NCBI RefSeq assembly: GCF_016917755.1
Contig: NZ_CP070326.1
Span: 186,001 to 250,000, forward strand
DNA from: Streptomyces noursei
Lineage (GTDB): Bacteria; Actinomycetota; Actinomycetes; Streptomycetales; Streptomycetaceae
Reading direction: 5' to 3'
DNA length: 64,000 nucleotides
Shown in pieces: positions 30,350 through 42,943 of the stretch. The notes beneath the pieces are model-generated. The model was not told the origin of the DNA and did not search any database. It was given only the letters and a program-made list of their open reading frames with translations. Made by a program: the position numbers and the translations under genes. Every line of letters begins with the position of its first letter. Position 1 is the first letter of the stretch.

Positions 30350-31085
30350 GGGTCGGCCCCGGGCGACTACTTCATGCCGCACCACGACGATCACGTCCGC
30401 GAGCTCACGCGCAACGAGGTCGTCCTCGCGGTCGCCGGATGGCAGATCACAGACACGCACGGCGAGGTGCCGATATGTACCGGAAAGTCCGCGCCCCCTC
30501 TCCCTCTTGATGGGCGTTCGAGGCCCGCCGCAATCTGCCGCATATCGACGTTCCGCGAGCGGCGATCCATCCAACTGGACTCCGTGTCCCGAAAGTTGCC
30601 CGCCCTCGACTCGCGCGACGCCCCAGTCGCCCTGAGCAACGACCGCCCCGCCGCCGATTCGGGAGAAGCCCACAGCATGAGGCTTGGGCCCGTCGAGCGT
30701 ATGGTTGACATAAGTGAAGTTCCCCTGAGGGAACGGACACCCGGCTGAGTGCCTGGATATCTGGTGAAGGCTCATCGCGCCTCAGCCGCACATGCGGCTC
30801 GAGGGTCCCCGAGAGCGGCGTCCGGGCGGGATCGCCACGTCGACGCCGGGGGCAGAGGTGCGACCTCATACCGAGGCAAGGTCGCGTGCCAATGCCTGTC
30901 CGACTCGTCGTCCCCGTGGGTTCCCACCACGTGGGACGACTGGCAACCAGGGCTTTTCGGCGTTCCGGCGCACTCCCGGCTCATCGGAGATGGTGTCGTG
31001 CGTAGATGTGCACTGTCGGTCACGTCCCTGTGCGGCCTGCCCGGTCCGGGCACAGGACCCTTGGCAGATGGTCGATGGCGGGCTC
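30350..31085. other. Long gap without a recognised gene
   Basis: A plus-strand frame after 30373 (MPHHDDHVRELTRNEVVLAV) is gene-like for about 45 codons and then decays; I do not recognise it. A TTGACA at 30705-30710 and the inverted repeat GTTCCC/GGGAAC at 30719-30734 suggest a lost or unannotated promoter. Otherwise nothing supported; the following stretch is the decayed transporter. Confidence 0.35.
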
Positions 31086-31583
31086 GCCTGCGGGCCGACG
31101 GCGCTGGTGTCCCGGATGCGGGTCAGCGCCTTCCCTGTCACGACGGAGCCGCCGGCGTCCGGTCGACCGCTTCGGATCCCCACGGTGCCGGCGCTTCCCG
31201 TCAGCTCCGCGCTGCTCTCGACGGCGAGGGTTCCCTGGCGCGGGGCGTGATGGCGGCATGCCTGGGTGTCGGCGGCGTTGAACATCGGCGCCGTCCACTG
31301 CCTGCTGTCCGGGGCCGCCCACCACCCGTACGTCGGGCGTGACAGCCCTGGTGCGCAGGGGACAGCCGGCGATGGGCCGCGAAGCGGCGTCAACGACGCC
31401 CGGCACCGTGCCCACCAGGCGGTGGCGCCGCGCGGCAGGGTGGCCGGGCTCGCGCACACCGCGGTCACGGGGACGCTGTTCGCCTTCGCGCTCTGCTTCC
31501 AGGGCACCGGCCGAGTCCCTTCGTTACCGGTGTCTGTCCTGGGGTTCACCAGGCCACGCGCCGCGACCGTCCTCCGCGGGGTG
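31086..31583 (+). pseudogene. Decayed EamA/DMT-family transporter
   Basis: One frame reads through recognisable DMT landmarks: FPVTTEPPASGRPL (normally VVTTE.LP..RPL), PALPVSSALLSTARVPWRGA, then a TGA at 31248, then WRHAWVSAALNIGAVHCLLS (normally ALNIGAFFALLF). After a break the late helices appear as GLAHTAVTGTLFAFAL and LPVSVLGFTRPRAATVL. At least one internal stop, several substitutions at usually fixed positions and a missing middle show that it is non-functional. It ends about 150 bases before the NRPS start. Confidence 0.6.
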
Positions 31584-31735
31584 GAGCCCTGGCGCCCGAT
31601 TGACGCTGTGCCTGTCGACGTGCCTGTCGTCGTGGCCCTCATGTTCGCCGGGCCCAAGCAGGAATCGCCCCGGGCGGTGGCCGGAGAGCCGGCATCGGCC
31701 CCGTCCCCACAGTTCTCGGCCGGCAGAGGAAAACC

Positions 31736-34700
31736 GTGAAGACCGCACCGCATCGCGCACCGATCGACCACAGCGCCACGGGTTGCCTGCCCGGTCTGTT
31801 GAAGCAGCAGGTCGAGGCGCAGCCCGATGCCATCGCGGTGGTCTGCGGCGATCGGTGCCTGACGTACCGCGAGCTGGCGGATTCGGCCCGTCGGTTGGCG
31901 GTGTTTCTCGGTCAACTCGGTGCGGGCCTGGAGGCGAGCGTCGGGGTGTTCGTCGAGCCGTCCCTGGAGCTGATGGTCGGCGTGTGGGGCATTCTGTTCG
32001 CCGGCGCCGCATATCTGCCGCTGTCGCCGGAGTACCCGGAGGAGCGGCTGCGCTACATGATCGACGACAGTCAGACGCGCATCATCGTAACGCAGCGTCA
32101 CCTGGCGGCCCAGCTAGCCGAACTGGCCCCGGCAGGCACCCGGATCGTCACCCCGGCCGACGTTCGGAGCTGCTGTACCACGCTCGCCCCGGTGCCGGTG
32201 CGGTCGGACGCGCTGGCGTACGTCATCTACACCTCGGGCAGCACCGGCAGGCCGAAGGGCGTGATGATCGAGCACCGCAGCATCGCTTCCCAGATGCGGT
32301 CGATGCACGTCTACGGGTATCTGGGCCAGGACAACACCGTGTTGCAGAAGACGCCGATGAGTTTCGACGCGGCCCAGTGGGAGATCCTCGCCCCGGCCGT
32401 CGGCGGCCGGGTGGTGATGGGCGCACAAGGCATCTACCGGGACCCGCGGGCGCTGGTCGCCGCGGTCGTCAGGCACCAGGTGACCACCTTGCAGTGCGTG
32501 CCCACACTGCTGCAAGCGCTGTTGGACACCGAGGAGTTCGGCCGCTGCACCTCGCTGCGGCGGGTGTTCTCCGGGGGCGAGGCACTGTCGTGGCGGCTCG
32601 CCCATGCTCTGGCCGACGAGCTTCCGTGGGTTTCGCTGGTCAATCTGTACGGACCGACGGAGGCCACCATCAACGCCACCGCCTATCCGATAGACCGGGA
32701 CGCGGACGGTGACGGCACGGGCAGCGTGCCGATCGGGGCGCCGGTCGGCGACACCCAGTGCTTCATCCTCGACGCCAACCTGGCTCCGGTGGGCATCGAG
32801 GAGACCGGCGAGCTGTACATCGGCGGCACCCAACTGGCGCGCGGATACCTGAACCAACCCCAACAGACTCAAGAGCGCTTCATCATCTCGCCGTTCGCCT
32901 CCACCGAACGTCTGTACCGCACGGGCGATCTCGCGTACTGGTGCCCGGACGGCACCATCCAGTTCGCCGGCCGGGTCGACAACCAGGTCAAAGTGCGTGG
33001 CTGTCGCGTCGAGCTCGATGAGGTCGCCCTCGCCATCGAGGAACACATCTGGGTCCGGCGCGCGGCGGTGGTCGTCACCGACAACCGCCGCACCGGCTCG
33101 GCGAGCCTGGTTGCCTGTGTGGAGCTGAATCCCAAGGAAGCGGCGCTGATGGACCAGGGGAACCACGGTGCTCACCACCAGTCCAAGGCCAGTCGGCTCC
33201 AGGTCAGGGCGCAGTTGTCCAACCCGGGTCTGCGCCGCCGTGAGCAGCTCGCCGGCAGGACCGTGCTGGAGTTGCCGGGCGGACAGGAGACGTCCCGGCA
33301 GCGCAGAGAGGTCTTCGCCCGCAAGACCTACCGCTTCTACGACGGCGCCCCGGTCACCCGGTCCGCGCTGCTGGCCCTGCTCGCCGAGCGCGTGGTCTGC
33401 GGCCGGTCCCGAGGACTGGACGAGCTGACCTTCGCGGAACTGGGCGCGTTGCTGCGCTGGTTCGGTGCCTTCCACAGCGACCAGCGGCTGCTGCCGAAGT
33501 ACGCCTACGCCTCGCCGGGAGCCTTGTACGCCACGCAGCTGTACCTGGAAACCGGCGGCGGAGCAGCGGGACTTGAGGCAGGCACGTACTACTACCACCC
33601 CGTCGAGCACGCCCTGGTGCGGATCGGTCCCCCTTCCCATGGGTCAAAGGGCCTTCTGCTGGTCCACTTCCTCGGCTGCAGGCGAGCCATTGAACCGGTG
33701 TACAGGAACAACATCCAGGAAGTGCTGGAGGTAGAGGCCGGACACATGGTCGGGCTCTTCGAGCAGGTGCTGCCGGAGTACGGCCTGGCCATCGAGCCGC
33801 TGGCCCTCGACGGGTCCGTCAAGGCCCTCCTGGACGTGTCCGACGAGGACCACTACCTGGGCACGTTCGCCATCCGCCCCGCCGGTGGGGAACCGTGGCC
33901 CGACTCCACCGACCTCTATGTCCAACCCCATCCAGGACGCGTCGAGGACCTGCCTGCGGGCCAATACCACTACGTCGACGGTGAATTGGCGCGCATATCG
34001 GATGAACTGGTGCTGCCGAAGCATGTCATCGCGATCAACCAGCAGGTCTATCGGCGAGCAAGCTTCGGCATCACGGCCGTCAGCCGCGCCGACCAGCCGT
34101 GGCTGGAGTACGTGGTGCTGGGCAGGAAACTCCACCACCTGCAACGCAACGGTCTGCATCTGGGCCTGATGTCCTCGGGGTACAGCTCGAAGACGGGCCA
34201 TCCGCTGCCCGCCGCCCAGCGCATCGACGACATCCTGTCCTCCTGCGGCATACCTGTCGGCGCCTCGTACTTCATCCTCGGCGGTGCAGTCAGCGACGAG
34301 CAGCTCCGCAGCGAGGACATGCGCGAGGACACCGTCCACATGAAGGGACCGGCCGAGATCGTCAAGGACGATCTGATCCGCATCCTGCCCGACTACATGG
34401 TCCCCGACCGGGTCCTGGTGCTCGACAGGTTGCCGCTGACGGCCAACGGCAAGGTCGACGTCAAGGCGCTCACCGTCTCCGGTCAGGTGCGGTCGGCGGA
34501 CCGCACCACCCCCTACGTCGCCCCCGTCACCCGGCATGAGAAGTGGCTCGCCGAGGCGTGGGGCAGAGCCCTGAAGTACGACAACGTCTCGATCGAGGAC
34601 GACTTCTTCGCCTGCGGTGGCGACTCGCTCACCGCCGTCGAGCTGGTCCTGACGATCAACCGTCGGTTCGGCGCCCGACTCCCGCTGCAGGTCGTCTTCG

Positions 34701-35563
34701 AGCACCCGAGGCTGGCCGACCTCGCCGCCCGCATCGCCGACTGCACCGCCCGCCCGTCCTCCCGGCTGGTGTCACTGCACGGCGAGGGCGTCGGCCGGCC
34801 CGTCTTCTGCTGGCCCGGACTGGGCGGCTACCCGATGAACCTACGCCTGCTCGCACGGCAGGTGGGCACGGACCGCGCCGTTCACGGAATCCAGGCACAC
34901 GGCGTCAACGCCGGTGAGGAGCCCTACCCGACCATCCGGGAGATGGCCGCTGCCGACCTCGCCGAGATCCGGCGCGTGCAGGACGTCGGCCCGTACACCC
35001 TGTGGGGCTACTCGTTCGGCGCCCGGGTCGCCTTCGAGGCCGCATGGCAGCTGGAGCAGTCCGGCCAACTGGTGGACAACCTGCTGCTGCTCTGCCCCGG
35101 AAACCCGAAGGTGCACTACGCCAACACCCACCGCTACGGGCGTCAGGCGTCGTACGCCAACCCGGCGTACCTGACGATCCTGTTCTCCGTCTTCGCCGGG
35201 TGCGTCGCCGGGCCCCAGCTCGACCGGTGTCTGGCGGCGGCCTCCGACGAGGACAGCTTCGTCGCCTTCATCCACCGGCTGCTCCCCGCCCTGGACGAGC
35301 AGTTGATCCGCCGGATCACCCGCATCGTCGCGCGCACGTACGAGTTCCAGTACGACGGCCACGAACTGGCCGAACGACAGCTCCACGTACCGGTCACCGT
35401 CTTCAACGCCACCGGTGACGAAGGCTCGTTCATCGAATTCTGGTCCGGCTATCGCGCCGCACCTCCGACGGTGGTCAACCTCGACGCGGATCACTACAGC
35501 GTGCTGAGAGACGCCGGCGTCACCGAACTCGCCGCCGCCATCCACGTACGCCTGGGCGCGTGA
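31736..35563 (+). CDS. Indigoidine-synthetase-type NRPS (A-Ox-PCP-TE)
   Basis: 1275 residues, GTG start with AGAGGA upstream; BpsA/IndC enzymes are about the same size. Adenylation domain with A3 YTSGSTGRPKG (~164) and SGGEAL...NLYGPTEATIN. It is interrupted after about residue 470 by an FMN oxidase domain (KEAALMDQGNHGAHH, FARKTYRFYDG, AYASPGALYATQLYL, LMSSGYSSKTGHPLPAA) and resumes to A10 PLTANGKVDVKAL. A carrier domain follows with FFACGGDSLTAVEL (Ser964), then a thioesterase with GYSFGARV (Ser1093). In characterised relatives, L-Gln is activated, cyclised, oxidised and dimerised to blue indigoidine. A PPTase is needed but none is nearby. Convergent with the aminotransferase gene. Confidence 0.93.
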   Translation: MKTAPHRAPIDHSATGCLPGLLKQQVEAQPDAIAVVCGDRCLTYRELADSARRLAVFLGQLGAGLEASVGVFVEPSLELMVGVWGILFAGAAYLPLSPEYPEERLRYMIDDSQTRIIVTQRHLAAQLAELAPAGTRIVTPADVRSCCTTLAPVPVRSDALAYVIYTSGSTGRPKGVMIEHRSIASQMRSMHVYGYLGQDNTVLQKTPMSFDAAQWEILAPAVGGRVVMGAQGIYRDPRALVAAVVRHQVTTLQCVPTLLQALLDTEEFGRCTSLRRVFSGGEALSWRLAHALADELPWVSLVNLYGPTEATINATAYPIDRDADGDGTGSVPIGAPVGDTQCFILDANLAPVGIEETGELYIGGTQLARGYLNQPQQTQERFIISPFASTERLYRTGDLAYWCPDGTIQFAGRVDNQVKVRGCRVELDEVALAIEEHIWVRRAAVVVTDNRRTGSASLVACVELNPKEAALMDQGNHGAHHQSKASRLQVRAQLSNPGLRRREQLAGRTVLELPGGQETSRQRREVFARKTYRFYDGAPVTRSALLALLAERVVCGRSRGLDELTFAELGALLRWFGAFHSDQRLLPKYAYASPGALYATQLYLETGGGAAGLEAGTYYYHPVEHALVRIGPPSHGSKGLLLVHFLGCRRAIEPVYRNNIQEVLEVEAGHMVGLFEQVLPEYGLAIEPLALDGSVKALLDVSDEDHYLGTFAIRPAGGEPWPDSTDLYVQPHPGRVEDLPAGQYHYVDGELARISDELVLPKHVIAINQQVYRRASFGITAVSRADQPWLEYVVLGRKLHHLQRNGLHLGLMSSGYSSKTGHPLPAAQRIDDILSSCGIPVGASYFILGGAVSDEQLRSEDMREDTVHMKGPAEIVKDDLIRILPDYMVPDRVLVLDRLPLTANGKVDVKALTVSGQVRSADRTTPYVAPVTRHEKWLAEAWGRALKYDNVSIEDDFFACGGDSLTAVELVLTINRRFGARLPLQVVFEHPRLADLAARIADCTARPSSRLVSLHGEGVGRPVFCWPGLGGYPMNLRLLARQVGTDRAVHGIQAHGVNAGEEPYPTIREMAAADLAEIRRVQDVGPYTLWGYSFGARVAFEAAWQLEQSGQLVDNLLLLCPGNPKVHYANTHRYGRQASYANPAYLTILFSVFAGCVAGPQLDRCLAAASDEDSFVAFIHRLLPALDEQLIRRITRIVARTYEFQYDGHELAERQLHVPVTVFNATGDEGSFIEFWSGYRAAPPTVVNLDADHYSVLRDAGVTELAAAIHVRLGA

Positions 35564-35601
35564 ACCGCCCGGCGCCGGGGAGGTGCGCCCCGGCGCGGTT
35601 C
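35561..35601. terminator. Bidirectional hairpin between NRPS and aminotransferase genes
   Basis: GAACCG...GCGCCGGGG pairs with CCCCGGCGC-GGTTC around a short loop, occupying almost the entire 36 bases between the two convergent stops. Confidence 0.7.
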
Positions 35602-36850
35602 ACCCGCCGGCCAGCGCCACGGCGGATCGCTCCAGGGACCGCAACAGCCAGCAGACGTGGTCGGGTTCCAGGATCGCCGGCGGGGTCAGGCGGATCACCC
35701 TGCTGGCGTTGAGCGTGTACGAGGTCAGTACGCGCTCCCGGAGCATATGGGTCAGGAACAGTCCGGCCGGCGCTTCGGAGGTGAACTCGATTCCGATGAG
35801 CAGTCCGCGCCCGCGGACCTCCCGGATGAGGGTCGGGCCGGCGGCGGCGAGCGCGTCGGTGATCTGCGGCAGGAGCCGGCCCCCGAGTGTCCTTGCCTGT
35901 TCCACCAGACGGTCCCGCCGCAGCACGTCGATCGTCGTGGCCGCGGCCACGGCCGCGAGGGGGTTGCCGCCGTAGGTCGAGGAGTGGAGCAACGGGTCCT
36001 GGTTGAGCACTTCGTAGACCTCGGGTGTGGCCAAGGTCGCGGCAACCGGCACGACCCCGCCGCTGAGCACCTTCCCCGTCGTCAGCACGTCCGGGCGCAC
36101 CTCTTCCTCGTCGCACCCCCACCAGGATCCGAGGCGGCCGAGTCCGGACTGGATCTCGTCCATGGCGAGCAGGGCGTGGAACTCGTCGCACAGCTCCCGC
36201 ACCTGCCTGAGGTAACCCGTGGGAGGAAGGCGCACCCCGCCCTCGGCCTGTACCGGTTCCAGCAGCACGCACGCCCGCGTCGCGTCGCTCGCCAGTGCGG
36301 CCTTCAGGGCCTCCGCGTCGCCGAACGGGACGAACTCCACGCCCGGCAGCAGGGGTTCGAGACCGGCGCGGTATCGGTTGTTGCCCGTGGCGCTGAGCGC
36401 CCCCAACGTCTTTCCGTGGAAGCCGCCCTCGGCGGCGATCACTCGGCGGCAGCCGTTGGCGCGGGCGAGTTTGATGGCCAACTCGACTGACTCGGTTCCC
36501 GAGTTGACGAAGAAGGCGTACTGCAGGCCGGCGGGTGCCACCGAGGTCAGTGCCTGTGCCGCGGAGGCCACGTTCGGTTCGATCAGTGCACGCGTCGGCA
36601 GCGGGTGCCTGCCCAACTGTGCCGCGACGGCGTCGACGACGTCGGGGTGTCGGTGTCCCAGGAGGAACACCCCGTACCCGCCGCAGTCGAGGTAGGCGGT
36701 GTCCTCCTCGTCGTACACCAGGGCACCGGACGAACGCACCTCCAACGGCAGACCGAGCAGGGAGGCGATGCGGGAGTGGCCGCGATTGACGTGATCACGG
36801 AGGTGGTCGAGCGCGACCGCCCGCGCTCGCCCCTTCTCCGCCGGGCTCAC
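35600..36850 (-). CDS. Class III PLP-dependent aminotransferase
   Basis: 416 residues. The GTG at 36850 overlaps the stop of the upstream SDR gene by four bases and has AGGAG at the right distance. Landmarks of the ornithine/acetylornithine/putrescine aminotransferase class: FFVNSGTESVELAIKLAR, GGFHGKTLGALS, LLEPVQAEGG, AMDEIQSGLGR (PLP-binding Asp) and the Schiff-base Lys in LTTGKVLSGG, then SSTYGGNPLA. It would transfer an amino group to an aldehyde or keto acid. Coupling to a thioester-reductase-like gene suggests that the aldehyde comes from that enzyme. Confidence 0.92.
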   Translation of the reverse strand: MSPAEKGRARAVALDHLRDHVNRGHSRIASLLGLPLEVRSSGALVYDEEDTAYLDCGGYGVFLLGHRHPDVVDAVAAQLGRHPLPTRALIEPNVASAAQALTSVAPAGLQYAFFVNSGTESVELAIKLARANGCRRVIAAEGGFHGKTLGALSATGNNRYRAGLEPLLPGVEFVPFGDAEALKAALASDATRACVLLEPVQAEGGVRLPPTGYLRQVRELCDEFHALLAMDEIQSGLGRLGSWWGCDEEEVRPDVLTTGKVLSGGVVPVAATLATPEVYEVLNQDPLLHSSTYGGNPLAAVAAATTIDVLRRDRLVEQARTLGGRLLPQITDALAAAGPTLIREVRGRGLLIGIEFTSEAPAGLFLTHMLRERVLTSYTLNASRVIRLTPPAILEPDHVCWLLRSLERSAVALAGG

Positions 36851-37893
36851 CGTGCCGCTCCTGCCGCGTTGCGAGGGTGAAATCCGCTGACGTTCGCCCA
36901 TCTGTACATGGAGGCACGCAACGTCTTTACCTGGTCGGGCAGTTCCTCCACATCGCTGGGGAACGGACCGCGGTCGGCGACGTACGGGGTCAGCTGCTCG
37001 GCGAAGGTTTTGATCATCCTCCGGGTCGACGCCGGCACGGCCTCGAGGAACACCGGCACGATGAGCCGCTCGTACAGGTCCTCGTCGACGAAGCGGGTGG
37101 CGGGGACGGGGCGACCCAGTGCCGCCGCGGCGGCCTGGACCTCGTCGGCGATGTGGCCCACTTGCAGGGCGCGCGATCCGGCCGTCAACCACACTTCCGT
37201 CCGCTCGAACTCGTTCTCCAGGAGTTCGGCGATGCACTTCGCCACGACGTCCTGGGGAACGAAGTCGAGCAGCCGGGTGGGGTCCAGCGGGACGAGGGGA
37301 AGCTGGCCGCGCATCATCGCTCCCAACAGGTTGTGAAACCCCTGGTGTTTGGCGATGTGACCGGTTCGGGAGTCGCCGACGATGACCGAGGGCCGGACGA
37401 CGACCGCCGACAGGCCACTGGCCCGCACGACCTCCTCGGCCTGCGCTTTGCTCCTGGCGTACGCCGGTGCAGCCGATTGACCGCCCGCGCCCAGGGCGGA
37501 GAACGCACTGCTGATGTACACCAGTCGCGCCTCGGCCTGCCGGGCAAGTTCGACGATCCGCTCGGTGCCCGCGACATTGGTTTCGACCAGATCGGACTTG
37601 CCGTCGAAGCTGGTGTCGGCCGCGGCATGCACCACCACATCGATCACCGCGGAGAGTTCCTTGAATTCTGTACGGGACAGCCCCAGGCAGGGCCGTCTGA
37701 TGTCTCCGCACACCGTCTTCACTCTCGGCGCGTTCAACGCGGTCGCGTGGATGAGACATGTGACATTGTGCGTACCGAGATACGGCAACAGCGCACTTCC
37801 CACCACTCCGGTCGCGCCGGTGAAGAGAACGTTCAGCGAAGGCTTTTCCGGCCGCGGGTACGGATGTCGGTGCCCCTCCTCCATCTGCCACAT
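36847..37893 (-). CDS. Thioester-reductase-like SDR (extended, NAD-binding 4 type)
   Basis: 348 residues from the ATG at 37893, preceded by GGAAGGA; an in-frame GTG lies 33 bases upstream. Extended SDR with nucleotide motif FTGATGVVGSAL, DVVVHAAADTSFDG, ETNVAGTERIVELA and a YARSK catalytic pair preceded by ISSAFS. The pattern is that of reductase domains releasing carrier- or CoA-bound acyl chains as aldehydes, though simple epimerases share it. Translationally coupled to the aminotransferase gene; together they could perform reduction followed by amination. Confidence 0.85.
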   Translation of the reverse strand: MWQMEEGHRHPYPRPEKPSLNVLFTGATGVVGSALLPYLGTHNVTCLIHATALNAPRVKTVCGDIRRPCLGLSRTEFKELSAVIDVVVHAAADTSFDGKSDLVETNVAGTERIVELARQAEARLVYISSAFSALGAGGQSAAPAYARSKAQAEEVVRASGLSAVVVRPSVIVGDSRTGHIAKHQGFHNLLGAMMRGQLPLVPLDPTRLLDFVPQDVVAKCIAELLENEFERTEVWLTAGSRALQVGHIADEVQAAAAALGRPVPATRFVDEDLYERLIVPVFLEAVPASTRRMIKTFAEQLTPYVADRGPFPSDVEELPDQVKTLRASMYRWANVSGFHPRNAAGAAR

Positions 37894-38444
37894 GGGTGTT
37901 GTGTCCTTCCATCGGGAATTCTCCACGCGAGAACGGGCGTGCGGCGCGGGCCCGAGGCACTGAGAAGAGAGGGATACCCACGGTTCACCTCCAGCCGCAG
38001 AGGCGGCCGGAACACTATCGGACGTAGCGCACCGTTACTTCAGGAACCGAGGAACATGCTATGGAGGTGTCGGACAGGCCACCACCGGAGACGCCACCCG
38101 ACGCGACCGCCACACGGAATGTGCGCACCTCGCACACCCATATCCCGGAGCAGTGCTTTCCCTTCGTCCCGCCTGTCGCCAGTCGTCCGCCGGATGGCGC
38201 AAGACCGCAGCTCCCGGCAGGCGCACGCTCCTCTTCGGGTCCTAGCATGACGGCATGGCAACGTGTGGCGCTGTTCCCCGCGACAATGAGGAGTGCCGCC
38301 GCATCCGACAGGAAAGAAACCGTCCCATCGACCGCAATTCCCATGGGAACGTCGCGCCCGGTTTGCGTTGATCTCCCCGACTCGCGCCAGGCCGCCGAAG
38401 ATCATGCCTTCTCTTATCCGTGGCTCGGAAAGTTTGGGGGTGCA
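37894..38444. other. Divergent promoter region, no gene supported
   Basis: It separates the minus-strand SDR/aminotransferase pair from the plus-strand SRPBCC/acyltransferase pair. Open frames exist on both strands but none has a ribosome-binding site plus a recognisable product. No clear palindrome longer than 8 bp was seen. Confidence 0.4.
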
Positions 38445-38939
38445 GTGCGCGAGGTCCGCGTTGCTCTTCACATTCCCGGTGGACAGCCGAGGAAGGTATT
38501 CGACTCACTCTCGGATTTCGCCAGCTTCCCCCTGTATTCCGACGTCGTGCACTCCGTCTCCCTTACGGACGGCCCCGACCACGACCGGATCTCCACATGG
38601 GAAGTCGACTTCGCCGGCGGGATTCTCAAGTGGCGGGAACGGGACCGTCTGGACAAACCGCGTCTGCGGATCGACTTCGAACTCGTCGACGGTGACCTGC
38701 ACGCCCTTTCCGGTGGCTGGTCGATCGCGCAGCTCCCGGAGGGGAGCACGGTCCGGTTCGGCGCCCGCTTCGATCTCGGGGTACCCGGTATGGCGGATCT
38801 CCTGGAACCCGTCGCCGGCCGGGCCATGACGGACACCGTGACCAAGATGCTGCACGGGGTCTTCGGCCCGGACGCCGAGGTCACCGAGTGCCAGGACCGG
38901 TCCGTGGCGCCTTTGGAGGGCTGCGGTGACCAGCCCTGA
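38445..38939 (+). CDS. SRPBCC / polyketide cyclase-like protein
   Basis: 164 residues from the GTG at 38445 (GGGGG seven bases before). This start puts the first strand VREVRVALHIPGG at the N-terminus, as in other members; the frame is open for another 380 bases upstream but without family similarity. Typical pattern: VFDSLSDFASFPLYSD, WEVDFAGGILKWRERD, IDFELVDGDLHALSGGW. Such helix-grip proteins bind hydrophobic ligands or guide cyclisation or aromatisation. The next gene starts 14 bases before its stop. Confidence 0.75.
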   Translation: MREVRVALHIPGGQPRKVFDSLSDFASFPLYSDVVHSVSLTDGPDHDRISTWEVDFAGGILKWRERDRLDKPRLRIDFELVDGDLHALSGGWSIAQLPEGSTVRFGARFDLGVPGMADLLEPVAGRAMTDTVTKMLHGVFGPDAEVTECQDRSVAPLEGCGDQP

Positions 38940-40074
38940 ACGCACGGCCGTGGGCTCGGACACCCAATGGCAGGTCGAGGTGGCCGACAGTGTCTCCGAG
39001 ATCCCTGAGGATGTCTGGCGGAATCTCGCGCCTCCCGACGACCCGCTCTACGAATACGCGTTGTTCCAGGCCATGGAACGGACCGGGATCGGCCCGGATG
39101 CCTATCGATACCTCGTACTCCGACAAGGACAGCACGTAGGGGCCGTGTTGCCCACCTGCGTCTTCCGCGCACTGGCCCTCGAAGACGCATTGGGGAAACA
39201 GGGGCGAAAGGCGCTGCGGCCGCTGCACCGCATCATGGGAAGACCGCTGCGCGTCGGGATGTTGGTGTGTGGAAACCTCCTGGGAGAAGGGAGGGTCCTG
39301 CGTGAGCCCGGACTCCATGCGGCGGCCCCGCATCTGCTGGTGAAGGCGGTGCGACAACTGGCTGCGGCGGCAGGCACCCGGTGGACCGTGGTCAAGGACT
39401 TCCCGCAGACGGACATGGAGTGGCTGGGACCGGCCCTGGAAAGCGCAGGCTTCTTTCGCGCGCCGGGAATGCCCGACGCTCGGATCGCTCTGCACGCCAA
39501 GACCTTCGAAGAATTCATCTCGTCCCTGTCGAGGAACGGGCGGAGCACCGCCCGGCGCAATCTGGCGAGGTTTTCCGAGCACGACGACGCGACCTTCGAG
39601 GTGCGTGAGCGCTTCGATGATCTCGTACCGGCCATGATGCCGCTCTACGAAGCGGTACTCGACCGTGCGGAGAGCCGGCTGGACGTCTGGACACCGGAAT
39701 TCATGACCCTGCTCTCCACCGACCCGAGGATCTCGGCCAAGGCGATCACCTGCTGGCAAGGAGAGCGCCTGGTGGGGTTCCTCATCTGCCTCTTCGGTGA
39801 GAAGAACTCGGTCGCGTTCCGTATCGGCATCGATTACGCCTGCTCGCGTGAACTGCGGCTCTACCAGGTCACCTACTACCGCGGCATCGAGGAAGCCATT
39901 CGCTCGGGGATGACCGAGATCAACCTGACGCAGACCGCCTACGAGTCAAAACGCAGGATGGGGTGCCACCTCGTCCCCCTCGAACATGCCGTGACGCACA
40001 GCAACCGGGTCTGCAGAGCGATTCTCAAGCGGGTGTTCCCGATGGCGCTCAACCGGTCCGGAGAGCAGCCATGA
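38926..40074 (+). CDS. FemAB/BioF2-like GNAT acyltransferase
   Basis: 382 residues, GTG start with GGAGGG upstream, overlapping the SRPBCC gene by 14 bases. The protein shows a double-GNAT arrangement (PF13480-like): SRNGRSTARRNLARFSEHDD, then LVGFLICLFGEKNSVAFRIG and INLTQTAYESKRRMGCHLVP. Relatives transfer acyl or aminoacyl groups to amines in cell-wall or lipid biosynthesis. Its acceptor could be the amine made by the neighbouring reductase/aminotransferase pair, but this is inference from gene order only. Confidence 0.8.
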   Translation: MTSPERTAVGSDTQWQVEVADSVSEIPEDVWRNLAPPDDPLYEYALFQAMERTGIGPDAYRYLVLRQGQHVGAVLPTCVFRALALEDALGKQGRKALRPLHRIMGRPLRVGMLVCGNLLGEGRVLREPGLHAAAPHLLVKAVRQLAAAAGTRWTVVKDFPQTDMEWLGPALESAGFFRAPGMPDARIALHAKTFEEFISSLSRNGRSTARRNLARFSEHDDATFEVRERFDDLVPAMMPLYEAVLDRAESRLDVWTPEFMTLLSTDPRISAKAITCWQGERLVGFLICLFGEKNSVAFRIGIDYACSRELRLYQVTYYRGIEEAIRSGMTEINLTQTAYESKRRMGCHLVPLEHAVTHSNRVCRAILKRVFPMALNRSGEQP

Positions 40075-40527: not shown

Positions 40528-40542
40528 TGGCACGCCTGGGAA

Positions 40543-40566
40543 CCTAGCTACTTGCTCCTGAAGAAG
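40543..40566 (+). repeat. Left terminal inverted repeat of the IS
   Basis: Starts CCTAGCTACTTGCTCC and differs from the right end only at position 21 (G versus A). Confidence 0.88.
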
Positions 40567-40645
40567 TATGGGACGTCGCTGGGTTGTCCTTTGGGGAGAG
40601 CTGGTGGGGGCTGTCTCTTGGCCGCGATAGTGGAGGCGGGTCGTT

Positions 40646-42028
40646 GTGGCCGGGGGTGGGGCGGTGTTGCGTGTCGCGGGAGTGCAGGATCCCTGGTGGG
40701 AGGTGCTGCCGGAGCAAGCTCGACAGATGCCCTCCGAGTTGGCCAGGATCGATGCGTATCTGGACGACGAGCGGTTCATCGCCCCCTGGCGCGGGGTATT
40801 CGCCGAGCGTCTGGGGCGGCCGTCGATCCCGGTCGAGACGCTACTTCGGCTGCTGTATCTCAAGCACCGCTACCAGCTCGGCTACGAGACGCTGTGCCGG
40901 GAGGTCGCCGACTCGTTGAGCTGGAGGCGGTTCTGCCGGATCCCACTGACGTCCCCGGTCCCGCACCCGACCACCTTGATCAAGCTGATGCGCCGCAGCG
41001 GAACGCAGACCGTCGAGCAGCTCAATGCCGCGCTGCTGGGCAAGCTGGTCGAAGACAAGCTGCTGCGATGCCGCAAACTGCGCATCGACACCACGGTAGT
41101 CGAAGCCGATATCGACCACCCCACAGACGCTGATCTGCTGGAGCACGGGGTGCGCGAGCCGGGCCGGCTGGTGCGGCGGATCAAGGCTGCGGGCGCGGCA
41201 AGGCGCACGTCCTTCCGGGATCGCAGTCGATCTGCGGGGCGCCGGCTGAAGGAGATCTCGCGTACGCTGCGGCGGCGCACCGGGCAGGCGCTGGGTGAGA
41301 TCGACCGGCTCACCGGTGAGATCGCGACTGTGGCTCGTGCGACCCTGCGGGACGTGGCTGCGGTGGAGCGCAATGCTCTGCGTGCGCTGGGCAAACGGCC
41401 TTCGGGACGGCTCGCGCATCTGGTGGGTGCGCTGGCCGAGACTGCGGCAGGCACCCGCCGGCTGCTGGAGCAGACCGCTTTGCGGCTGGCGGGCATCCGC
41501 ACAATCCCTGACCGGCTGGTTTCGTTGGCCGACCCCGATGCCCGGCCGATCCGCAAGGGCAAACCCCAGCACCCCACCCAGTTCGGCTACACGGCACTGG
41601 TGGCCGAGGACGAACGCGGCTTCGTCGTCGACCACCAAGTCCAACGTGGGAACCCACCCGACGCGCCGCAACTGGTTCCCTCCGTGGAGCGTGTCACCAT
41701 GCTGACCGGCCGCCCACCGGGCACGATCGTCGCCGACCGGGGCTTCGGTACCGCGGCCAACGACCAGTCCCTGACCGAACTCGGCGTCCAGCGGATCGGT
41801 CTCCAACGCGCTGGAAGACCCGGCAAGGCACGACGTGAACACGAACGAAGTCGCCCGTTCCGGCGCATGCGCAACTGGAGAGTCGGGATCGAGGCCCGCA
41901 TCAGCCATCTCAAGCGCAGCTTCGGCTTCCGCCGCACCCGCCTCCGCCGCCTGACCGGCGCCCAGACCTGGGCCGGACTCGGGATCTTCGCCTACAACCT
42001 CCACCGGATGACCACCCACAGCCGGTGA
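40646..42028 (+). CDS. DDE transposase
   Basis: 460 residues. N-terminal DUF772-type domain (ETLLRLLYLKHRYQLGYETL, then CREVADSLSWRRFCRIPL), a first acidic residue in RIDTTVVEADID, a basic middle insertion of about 130 residues, a second Asp in GTIVADRGFGT and a Glu in WRVGIEARISHLKRSFG. This matches IS5/ISNCY-like elements with a large insert between the first and second catalytic residues. The frame is intact from end to end, so the element is probably active. GTG start; later starts are possible. Confidence 0.88.
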   Translation: MAGGGAVLRVAGVQDPWWEVLPEQARQMPSELARIDAYLDDERFIAPWRGVFAERLGRPSIPVETLLRLLYLKHRYQLGYETLCREVADSLSWRRFCRIPLTSPVPHPTTLIKLMRRSGTQTVEQLNAALLGKLVEDKLLRCRKLRIDTTVVEADIDHPTDADLLEHGVREPGRLVRRIKAAGAARRTSFRDRSRSAGRRLKEISRTLRRRTGQALGEIDRLTGEIATVARATLRDVAAVERNALRALGKRPSGRLAHLVGALAETAAGTRRLLEQTALRLAGIRTIPDRLVSLADPDARPIRKGKPQHPTQFGYTALVAEDERGFVVDHQVQRGNPPDAPQLVPSVERVTMLTGRPPGTIVADRGFGTAANDQSLTELGVQRIGLQRAGRPGKARREHERSRPFRRMRNWRVGIEARISHLKRSFGFRRTRLRRLTGAQTWAGLGIFAYNLHRMTTHSR

Positions 42029-42099
42029 GGCAGGGACCAACGGCAGACCGGCGGCCAGGGCGCCATCCAACCGCACCGCCCCCGCCACCAGCCCAAACC

Positions 42100-42123
42100 C
42101 TTTTTCAGGAGCAAGTAGCTAGG
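42100..42123 (-). repeat. Right terminal inverted repeat of the IS
   Basis: Complement of the left end with one mismatch. Its last bases CTAG provide the TAG stop codon of the ZIP transporter gene on the minus strand. Confidence 0.88.
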
Positions 42124-42943
42124 CACCCGCTGCCGTGACGACGGCGTCCGTGGCGAAGCCGAGCAGCAGGCCGACAAGGATGCACCAGGTCGTGAGGATC
42201 TTCTGTCCGCTCCTGCGAGCCACCGCCAGCAGTTCGATGACGACGTAGAGGATCGAACCCGCGGCCAGGCCGAGGAAGGCGATCGAGAGGGTGTCGTTGA
42301 CCAGGTGCTGGCCGACGATGGTCCCCAGGAAGGTGGGACCGCCGCCGATCAGACCGAGCCCGAGCAGCGTGAGCCAGGAAGGCCGTTCGCCTTCGGCGGC
42401 CAGCGGCGCGACGATGCCGAAGCCCTCGGTGGCGTTGTGCAGTCCGAACCCGACGATCAGCAGGACGGCGAGGGAGAGTTCGCCCTGGGCGGCGGAGTTC
42501 CCGATGGCCAGCCCCTCGGCGAAGTTGTGCAGGCCGATACCGGTGGCGATCATCAGCGCGAGCGAGCCCGCCTGGCTGCGGTTCTTCCGGGGCAGCTCGG
42601 TGGTCACCGCGCCCGGGTCCGCCGACTGTGCGGTGGCGGCCCGGCGGCGGCCGAGCCAGCTGTCGTAGTGCACGAGGCCGGCCAGTCCGATCGTCAGGCC
42701 CACGGCCAGCGTGCCGCCTCCGGTCGCGACCGTCTCCCAGTCGTGTTTGCCCAGCGCGGTGTCGATGGGGTCCCAGGCATGGGTCAGAACGTCCCAGACA
42801 AGGAAGGTCAGGATGCCGATGGCCACCGCGTTCAGCCCTGCCTTGAGGCGGGGTGTGGGAGTGCGCAGGCGGCCGAGGGGAAGTCCGAGATAGATGGTGA
42901 AACCTGCGATAGCTCCCAGAAGGGCGATATGCGCGCTGGACAT
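42119..42943 (-). CDS. ZIP-family divalent metal transporter, 3' end altered by the IS
   Basis: 274 residues, about eight membrane helices. Metal-binding motifs HNFAEGLAIG in helix 4 and HNATEGFGI in helix 5 are intact. The stop codon is formed by the terminal repeat of the adjacent insertion sequence, so the original last residues have been lost or replaced; the last helix (CILVGLLLGFATDAVVTAAGA) looks complete and the protein may still work. GGAGA precedes the ATG at 42943. A DtxR-type box 42 bases upstream suggests control by iron or manganese. Confidence 0.88.
   Translation of the reverse strand: MSSAHIALLGAIAGFTIYLGLPLGRLRTPTPRLKAGLNAVAIGILTFLVWDVLTHAWDPIDTALGKHDWETVATGGGTLAVGLTIGLAGLVHYDSWLGRRRAATAQSADPGAVTTELPRKNRSQAGSLALMIATGIGLHNFAEGLAIGNSAAQGELSLAVLLIVGFGLHNATEGFGIVAPLAAEGERPSWLTLLGLGLIGGGPTFLGTIVGQHLVNDTLSIAFLGLAAGSILYVVIELLAVARRSGQKILTTWCILVGLLLGFATDAVVTAAGA

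What the first reader, a model, noticed from the sequence alone, without database searches (positions are those of the whole stretch)
31736..35563. Indigoidine-synthetase-type NRPS without the usual indigoidine partners
The A-Ox-PCP-TE enzyme has all catalytic motifs and the size of BpsA/IndC, but no IndA-type pseudouridine glycosidase, IndB-type phosphatase or PPTase is nearby. Instead it faces a reductase/aminotransferase pair and an SRPBCC/acyltransferase pair. It may make indigoidine alone, or its glutamine-derived product may be modified into something not described.
Basis: partly seen in the sequence, partly recalled or inferred. Interest (0 to 1): 0.8.

Follow-up and report, generated by a model that had tools for sequence, protein, structure and literature searches.

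The report
Indigoidine enzyme with fatty-amine genes
A Streptomyces enzyme of the kind that makes the blue pigment indigoidine sits in a conserved five-gene block with genes whose relatives are thought to turn fatty acids into amines, so the bacterium may make an oily, modified form of the pigment.

Summary
Window 31736-35563 (+) encodes a complete A-Ox-T-TE synthetase of the BpsA/IndC kind, with the glutamine code DAWQFGLIN, the FMN-binding Arg, the carrier Ser and the TE Ser. No IndA, IndB or phosphopantetheinyl transferase gene was found in the window, and the genome has no IndA-family match. Lacking IndA is common: it lies near only 41 of 121 relatives examined.

The neighbours are not incidental. 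NRPS, class III aminotransferase, thioester reductase, SRPBCC protein and FemAB-like transferase form one 8.4-kb block, about 84% identical in DNA and in the same order in three other Streptomyces whose flanks differ from the window's. All five genes show purifying selection.

Reductase, aminotransferase and SRPBCC are homologous to a module of azoxy (azodyrecin-type) clusters, where the published proposal is that a long-chain amine is made from a fatty acid. Here the module lacks the N-hydroxylase found near it in all ten such loci I examined.

Best reading: an alkylamine is joined to the glutamine-derived ring, giving an N-alkylated indigoidine-type pigment. Such a pigment is known from Shewanella violacea; my searches found no paper on its genes. 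Enzymes and synteny are shown; the product is inferred. New variant of a known kind.

The parts
31736..35563 (+). Indigoidine-synthetase-type NRPS, A-Ox-T-TE, 1275 aa
35600..36850 (-). Class III PLP aminotransferase (AT3), 416 aa; GTG start overlaps the TER stop (GTGA)
   Evidence: 50% identical to the AT3 of azoxy-type cluster L210
36847..37926 (-). Stand-alone thioester reductase (TER, NAD_binding_4), up to 359 aa; exact start uncertain; TGxxGxxG and YxxxK present
   Evidence: 36% identical to the L210 TER
37927..38444 (.). Divergent intergenic region with a short stretch (about 38010-38085) conserved in four strains; possible shared regulatory region
   Evidence: alignment; no sigma-70-like promoter or terminator found
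38445..38939 (+). SRPBCC / Polyketide_cyc protein, 164 aa (start corrected from 38061)
   Evidence: 37% identical to the L210 SRPBCC
38926..40074 (+). FemAB-like / Acetyltransf_6 (GNAT) transferase, 382 aa
   Evidence: homologues beside VlmH-like genes in L196, L197, L198 and a VlmH-like fragment in L219
31622..40078 (.). The five-gene block conserved as a unit (limits of the DNA match to Streptomyces sp. CT34)
   Evidence: GC 0.675 against 0.72 and 0.70 in the flanks
30637..31600 (+). Decayed EamA-type permease remnant upstream of the NRPS; a full-length open homologue is present in relatives L119, L120, L126

Best explanation
The five genes are one small biosynthetic gene cluster. The NRPS loads L-Gln, cyclises it through its TE to 3-aminopiperidine-2,6-dione and oxidises that with its FMN Ox domain, as shown for IdgS (inferred here). 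TER reduces a fatty acyl thioester, probably acyl-ACP, to a fatty aldehyde and AT3 transaminates it to a primary alkylamine, as shown for TamH and proposed for Ady2/Ady4 (inferred here from homology and gene make-up). No N-hydroxylase is present, so the free amine is used. The alkylamine then becomes attached to the glutamine-derived ring, perhaps by exchange at a 3-imino group helped by the SRPBCC and/or FemAB-like protein (speculative), and two units couple to an N-alkylated indigoidine-type pigment. My odds: Gln-specific indigoidine-type NRPS 0.95; one functional cluster 0.85; TER+AT3 make an alkylamine 0.7; that amine ends up on the indigoidine ring 0.45.
For: NRPS intact with Gln code and catalytic residues. 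The block recurs in Streptomyces sp. CT34 (L116), MspMP-M5 (L117) and BHT-5-2 plasmid p1 (L195) at 83-85% DNA identity, same order and strands; outside it the only DNA match of these three to the window is the decayed permease region. BHT-5-2 was returned by separate NRPS, TER and FemAB queries. dN/dS (Nei-Gojobori) is 0.15-0.48 over the five genes. The carriers fall in one five-member NRPS clade (SH-aLRT 100). Of 12 TER loci fetched outside the window, 10 have AT3 next to TER and all 10 have a VlmH-like gene within 4 kb; 9 also have SRPBCC. L210, one of them, also encodes LPG_synthase_C, flavin reductase and a PF04072 methyltransferase, in line with azodyrecin clusters, where Ady2 and Ady4 are proposed to turn a fatty acid into the aliphatic amine (PMC9379638, passages). 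TamH is an experimental precedent: C12 acyl-ACP to aldehyde to amine (PMC9594044, passages). An alkylated indigoidine, 5,5'-didodecylamino, exists in Shewanella violacea (PMC3180183, passages). The upstream permease of outgroups is decayed or undetected in this clade, which fits a changed product but does not show it.
Against: No product or expression data. TER is only 35-42% and AT3 47-54% identical to the homologues in those ten loci, so substrates may differ, and the Ady2/Ady4 step is itself a proposal. TamH's reductase domain is described as of the acyl-ACP-reductase family; its homology to this TER was not tested. The FemAB role is unknown, and both structure models were too poor to use. 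S. albospinus, in the same clade and as close as the carriers (85%), keeps the NRPS without the cassette, so the NRPS can stand alone. None of the 40 relatives fetched has any of the four neighbours, and only 2 of 80 named loci do. Whether Shewanella violacea has a comparable locus could not be checked.
Confidence: 0.45

Rival explanations
1. Two co-located but chemically separate pathways: the NRPS makes plain indigoidine, and the four other genes make an N-acylated alkylamine or similar lipid.
For: BpsA/IndC alone is reported to suffice for indigoidine (PMC3992020, passage); S. albospinus has the NRPS without the cassette; FemAB, SRPBCC and TER homologues occur together without an indigoidine-type Ox domain in L196, L197 and L219.
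Against: The block keeps its gene order in four strains in three flank contexts. No close relative of the cassette was found away from this NRPS: best non-own TER 46% and FemAB 40-42% in the genomes searched, and the single plasmid record at 60-80% also holds the NRPS.
Confidence: 0.22
2. The FemAB-like enzyme condenses the alkylamine with a glutaminyl donor (Gln on the NRPS carrier, or Gln-tRNA), giving an N-alkyl glutamine amide or N-alkyl glutarimide rather than a 5-alkylamino indigoidine.
For: FemAB homologues sit beside VlmH-like genes in L196, L197 and L198, where no VlmA-like gene was found, hinting that FemAB may take VlmA's place; VlmA is a tRNA-utilising enzyme (PMC9379638, passage).
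Against: The same VlmA query also missed L199, L200, L206 and L208, which have no FemAB, so the hint is weak. The NRPS keeps an intact TE and Ox, which would be idle for a simple amide. The FemAB match is to the broad Acetyltransf_6 family and its donor is unknown.
Confidence: 0.15
3. TER and AT3 act on the NRPS-bound glutaminyl thioester itself, giving a Gln-derived amino-aldehyde or diamine that cyclises to a reduced piperidine.
For: Reductive release followed by transamination is known chemistry (a coelimycin TR-aminotransferase analogy is mentioned in PMC9594044); TER matches the thioester-reductase model TIGR01746, below its cut-off (105 of 213 bits).
Against: The NRPS has its own intact TE, and homologous modules sit in clusters of the azodyrecin type, whose proposed amine comes from a fatty acid.
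Confidence: 0.1
4. Decaying or silent remnant of a transferred cluster.
For: Lower GC than the flanks, an IS element 0.46 kb downstream, a decayed permease upstream.
Against: All five frames open, dN/dS 0.15-0.48, motifs kept.
Confidence: 0.05

Closest known systems
BpsA / IndC / IdgS indigoidine synthetases (e.g. the enzyme on plasmid pSA3239 of Streptomyces lavendulae CCM 3239, WP_030237949.1)
   Same: A-Ox-T-TE architecture, FMN Arg, carrier Ser, TE Ser; 57-58% identity in the Ox domain
   Different: The pSA3239 locus has an IndA-type glycosidase, EamA transporter, uracil phosphoribosyltransferase, tautomerase, alkene reductase and PRPP synthase; the window has only a decayed EamA remnant and an alkylamine-type module instead
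Azodyrecin/valanimycin-type azoxy clusters (L204, L205, L207, L210, L211 by gene content)
   Same: Linked TER, AT3 and SRPBCC genes
   Different: Window lacks VlmH-like, VlmA-like, flavin reductase and LCM homologues and has an NRPS instead. The label VlmH-like for the acyl-CoA-dehydrogenase-type protein is from recall and gene context
TamH (tambjamine) and PigE (prodigiosin)
   Same: TamH couples a thioester reductase and a class III transaminase to make an alkylamine (PMC9594044, passages); AT3 matches the PigE model, below its cut-off (332 of 850 bits), and PDB 4ppm
   Different: TamH is a fusion protein, here the genes are separate; TamH's reductase is described as an acyl-ACP-reductase type; different pathways
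Shewanella violacea violet pigment, 5,5'-didodecylamino-4,4'-dihydroxy-3,3'-diazodiphenoquinone-(2,2')
   Same: An alkylated indigoidine, the kind of product predicted here (PMC3180183, passages)
   Different: A Shewanella product; I found no paper on its genes and could not test homology

Membership tests
Indigoidine synthetase (BpsA/IndC/IdgS) | A domain with Gln specificity code | tested here: met
   DAWQFGLIN read from the alignment, equal to the published signature; position mapping recalled
Indigoidine synthetase (BpsA/IndC/IdgS) | Ox domain inserted in the A domain, FMN-binding Arg kept | tested here: met
   Arrangement; R529 = IdgS R539; 118 of 120 conserved Ox columns kept
Indigoidine synthetase (BpsA/IndC/IdgS) | Carrier Ser and TE Ser | tested here: met
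   GGDSL and GYSFG, S1093 = IdgS S1102
Indigoidine synthetase (BpsA/IndC/IdgS) | Produces indigoidine from L-Gln | not testable with these tools
   Needs expression with a PPTase
Indigoidine cluster with IndA/IndB | IndA-type glycosidase and IndB-type phosphatase linked | tested here: not met
   (IndB: one HAD-type query taken from L060)
Azoxy (valanimycin/azodyrecin) cluster | VlmH-like N-hydroxylase and VlmA-like transferase | tested here: not met
   No match in the window. No VlmH-like match in the genome (the tool warns that an empty answer alone shows little; the same query matched 13 of 16 fetched loci by tblastn). VlmA in the rest of the genome not tested
Azoxy (valanimycin/azodyrecin) cluster | VlmO/VlmB pair | not tested
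   No query was run
Alkylamine-forming TER + class III aminotransferase module | Adjacent TER and AT3 with SDR and PLP motifs | tested here: met
   (motifs recalled)
Alkylamine-forming TER + class III aminotransferase module | Converts fatty acyl thioester to amine | not testable with these tools
   Biochemistry needed

The most novel reading that the evidence does not exclude
This is the first recognised gene cluster for a lipidated (N-alkylated) indigoidine: an indigoidine synthetase combined with a fatty-amine module of the azoxy type without its N-hydroxylase, giving a hydrophobic, possibly membrane-associated redox pigment like the didodecylamino-indigoidine of Shewanella violacea, with the small-molecule exporter lost on the way.
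Probability: 0.33. Interest if true: 0.75.

Novelty: new variant of a known kind. Interest (0 to 1): 0.6.

Why it matters
Indigoidine is used as a reporter and bio-dye, but I found no paper describing genes for its natural alkylated relative. If the reading is right, five small genes would give a genetic route to oil-soluble indigoidine dyes, and would show a fatty-amine module shared between azoxy and pigment pathways. The prediction is easy to test because the product should be coloured.

Tried and rejected
Early reading dropped: after (none of 40 same-genus relatives had the neighbours) I took the neighbours to be unrelated. The plasmid searches and the named loci overturned that.

Structure predictions of the FemAB-like and SRPBCC proteins had mean pLDDT 45 and 42 from three sequences each; no fold search was run on them. 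A profile search of the FemAB alignment against PDB sequences found nothing credible. Promoter/terminator scan of the divergent region: nothing. Paper searches whose listings showed no gene cluster for an alkylated indigoidine: 2 of 2 listed; 20 of 50 listed; 6 of 6; 20 of 86; 15 of 1,174; mostly unrelated chemistry. Strain names: (20 of 38 listed); the CT34 genome note has no mention of indigoidine or pigment (term search). Weak AT3 matches (29-32%) in named loci L186, L123 and L175 were taken as unrelated aminotransferases and not examined.

An entry in my notebook says the A-domain code is identical across 39 of 40 relatives; that is too strong. In one search five rows have Y for F at position 299, one has V for L at 322, and two have V for I at 330. 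One row (L064) lacks the A domain in my gene call and was not read.

Rows left out: of 42 full-length non-own places, 40 were fetched (G266 and G291 were not). The 121 loci counted include about ten that are the same locus twice; those were dropped from the tree (112 of 122 rows). Of 39 TER places outside the window, 12 were fetched: seven of the eight best and five others. L206 ends inside AT3, so SRPBCC could not be seen there.
Full report
The observation. The reading frame at 31736-35563 (+) is a 1275-residue A-Ox-T-TE synthetase. Its adenylation code, read from an alignment with relatives, is DAWQFGLIN, matching the DAWQFGLINK signature published for the S. albus indigoidine enzyme (PMC3992020, passages); the mapping of code positions is from recall. 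The FMN-binding Arg and TE Ser tested by mutation in IdgS (PMC10989907, passages) are present as R529 and S1093. Of 371 strongly conserved columns 366 are kept; the five departures are S189, I319, V420, A538 and D861. The window genome has no other match to the Ox domain at E 1e-10, no IndA-family gene and six PF01648 hits, none in the window.

Is the lack of partners unusual? No. Among 121 indigoidine-type loci (40 from same-genus genomes, 80 named, one plasmid; about ten of them counted twice) an IndA homologue lies in the fetched stretch of 41 and an EamA permease in 33. The enzyme family occurs in many gene settings.

The neighbours belong to it. None of the 40 same-genus loci has the reductase, aminotransferase, SRPBCC or FemAB genes. 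But Streptomyces sp. BHT-5-2 plasmid p1 was hit by the NRPS, TER and FemAB queries run separately, and two of 80 named loci, Streptomyces sp. CT34 and MspMP-M5, carry all four neighbours. Window 31622-40078 matches CT34 over 8527 aligned bases at 84.6%; MspMP-M5 matches 31723-40064 at 84.6% and BHT-5-2 the same stretch in two pieces at 84.1 and 83.5%. Outside the block the only DNA matches of these three to the window are in the decayed permease region, and window gene calls outside the block have no match in them (8 to 15 kb of flank seen on each side). MspMP-M5 and BHT-5-2 share flanks with each other, so the four strains show three contexts. All five genes show dN/dS of 0.15-0.48.

History. 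In a 112-row tree (quick method, SH-aLRT only) the four carriers and S. albospinus form a clade with support 100; two further relatives, G090 and NBRC 110611, branch just outside. S. albospinus, G090 and NBRC 110611 lack the cassette at this locus. One gain followed by a loss in S. albospinus is the simplest account, but branching among window, S. albospinus and CT34 is weakly supported. An EamA permease frame is full-length just upstream in the outgroups L119, L120 and L126; it is broken into pieces in the window and S. albospinus and was not detected upstream in the other five of the seven rows. The block has lower GC than its surroundings.

What the cassette is. TER, AT3 and SRPBCC are homologous (36, 50 and 37%) to three linked genes in L210. 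Around them L210 encodes LPG_synthase_C (PF09924), an acyl-CoA-dehydrogenase-like protein (here called VlmH-like, from recall and context), a flavin reductase and, further off, a PF04072 methyltransferase. PF09924 (VlmA) and PF04072 (Ady1) are named in the account of azodyrecin-type azoxy clusters (PMC9379638, passages). That paper proposes that the dehydrogenase Ady2 makes an aldehyde from a fatty acid and the transaminase Ady4 turns it into the aliphatic amine. Of 12 TER loci fetched outside the window, AT3 lies next to TER in 10, SRPBCC is present in 9 of these, and a VlmH-like gene in all 10; the other two (L201 and the window genome's second TER, L203) have none of the three. A VlmA-like gene was seen in six (L202, L204, L205, L207, L210, L211). 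The window has no VlmH-like or VlmA-like gene, and the genome no VlmH-like match (the tool warns that an empty answer alone shows little). TamH gives an experimental precedent for thioester to aldehyde to amine (PMC9594044, passages). The FemAB-like protein is rarer: outside the window five genomes had a match at E 1e-15 or better. In the four at about 40% identity a VlmH-like gene, or in L219 a 54-residue fragment of one, lies beside it; the fifth, at 27%, has none.

Mechanism. Shown here: an intact Gln-type indigoidine synthetase, a conserved five-gene block, and homology of three genes to a module of azoxy-type clusters, without its N-hydroxylase. Following from known families: Gln to 3-aminopiperidine-2,6-dione to the oxidised ring; acyl thioester to aldehyde to amine. 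Inferred: the amine joins the ring, giving an N-alkylated indigoidine-type pigment. Speculative: which of SRPBCC or FemAB helps that step, and whether exchange at an imino group is the route. The didodecylamino-indigoidine of Shewanella violacea (PMC3180183, passages) shows that such products occur in nature.

Novelty. Searches for alkylated indigoidine, its genes, or indigoidine with amine chemistry listed no paper that describes such a cluster; three of the five listings were capped, and most subscription papers are absent from the library. The parts are all of known families; the combination is new to me. I file it as a new variant of a known kind.

Limits. The chain length, the acyl donor, the FemAB reaction and the product are unknown. 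Structure models were unusable. The cassette is known in four genomes only, and the genome searches overlap in the genomes they sample.

Noticed in passing
window 40538-42128: An IS element of about 1.6 kb with 29-nt terminal inverted repeats (90% complementary) around a DUF772/DDE_Tnp_1 transposase at 40646-42028, 0.46 kb downstream of the block.
   Followed up: partly
whole genome (G000) and genomes G191, G090, G023: No PF04227 (pseudouridine glycosidase/IndA family) match at all, whereas 36 of the 39 other indigoidine-NRPS genomes searched have at least one, in 24 of them only away from the NRPS.
   Followed up: no
L196, L197, L198, L219: A cluster type with a FemAB-like transferase beside a VlmH-like gene (a fragment in L219); in L196/L197 also SRPBCC, class III aminotransferase, ketosynthase, TER and P450, and no match to the VlmA query: possibly an azoxy or hydroxylamine pathway with FemAB in VlmA's place.
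   Followed up: partly
G000:C1:1429770-1430567: A second stand-alone TER homologue (39%) in the window's genome, without a matching AT3 or SRPBCC gene in the 20 kb around it.
   Followed up: partly
window 38010-38085: Stretch in the divergent TER/SRPBCC intergenic region strongly conserved among four strains, a candidate operator or promoter.
   Followed up: no
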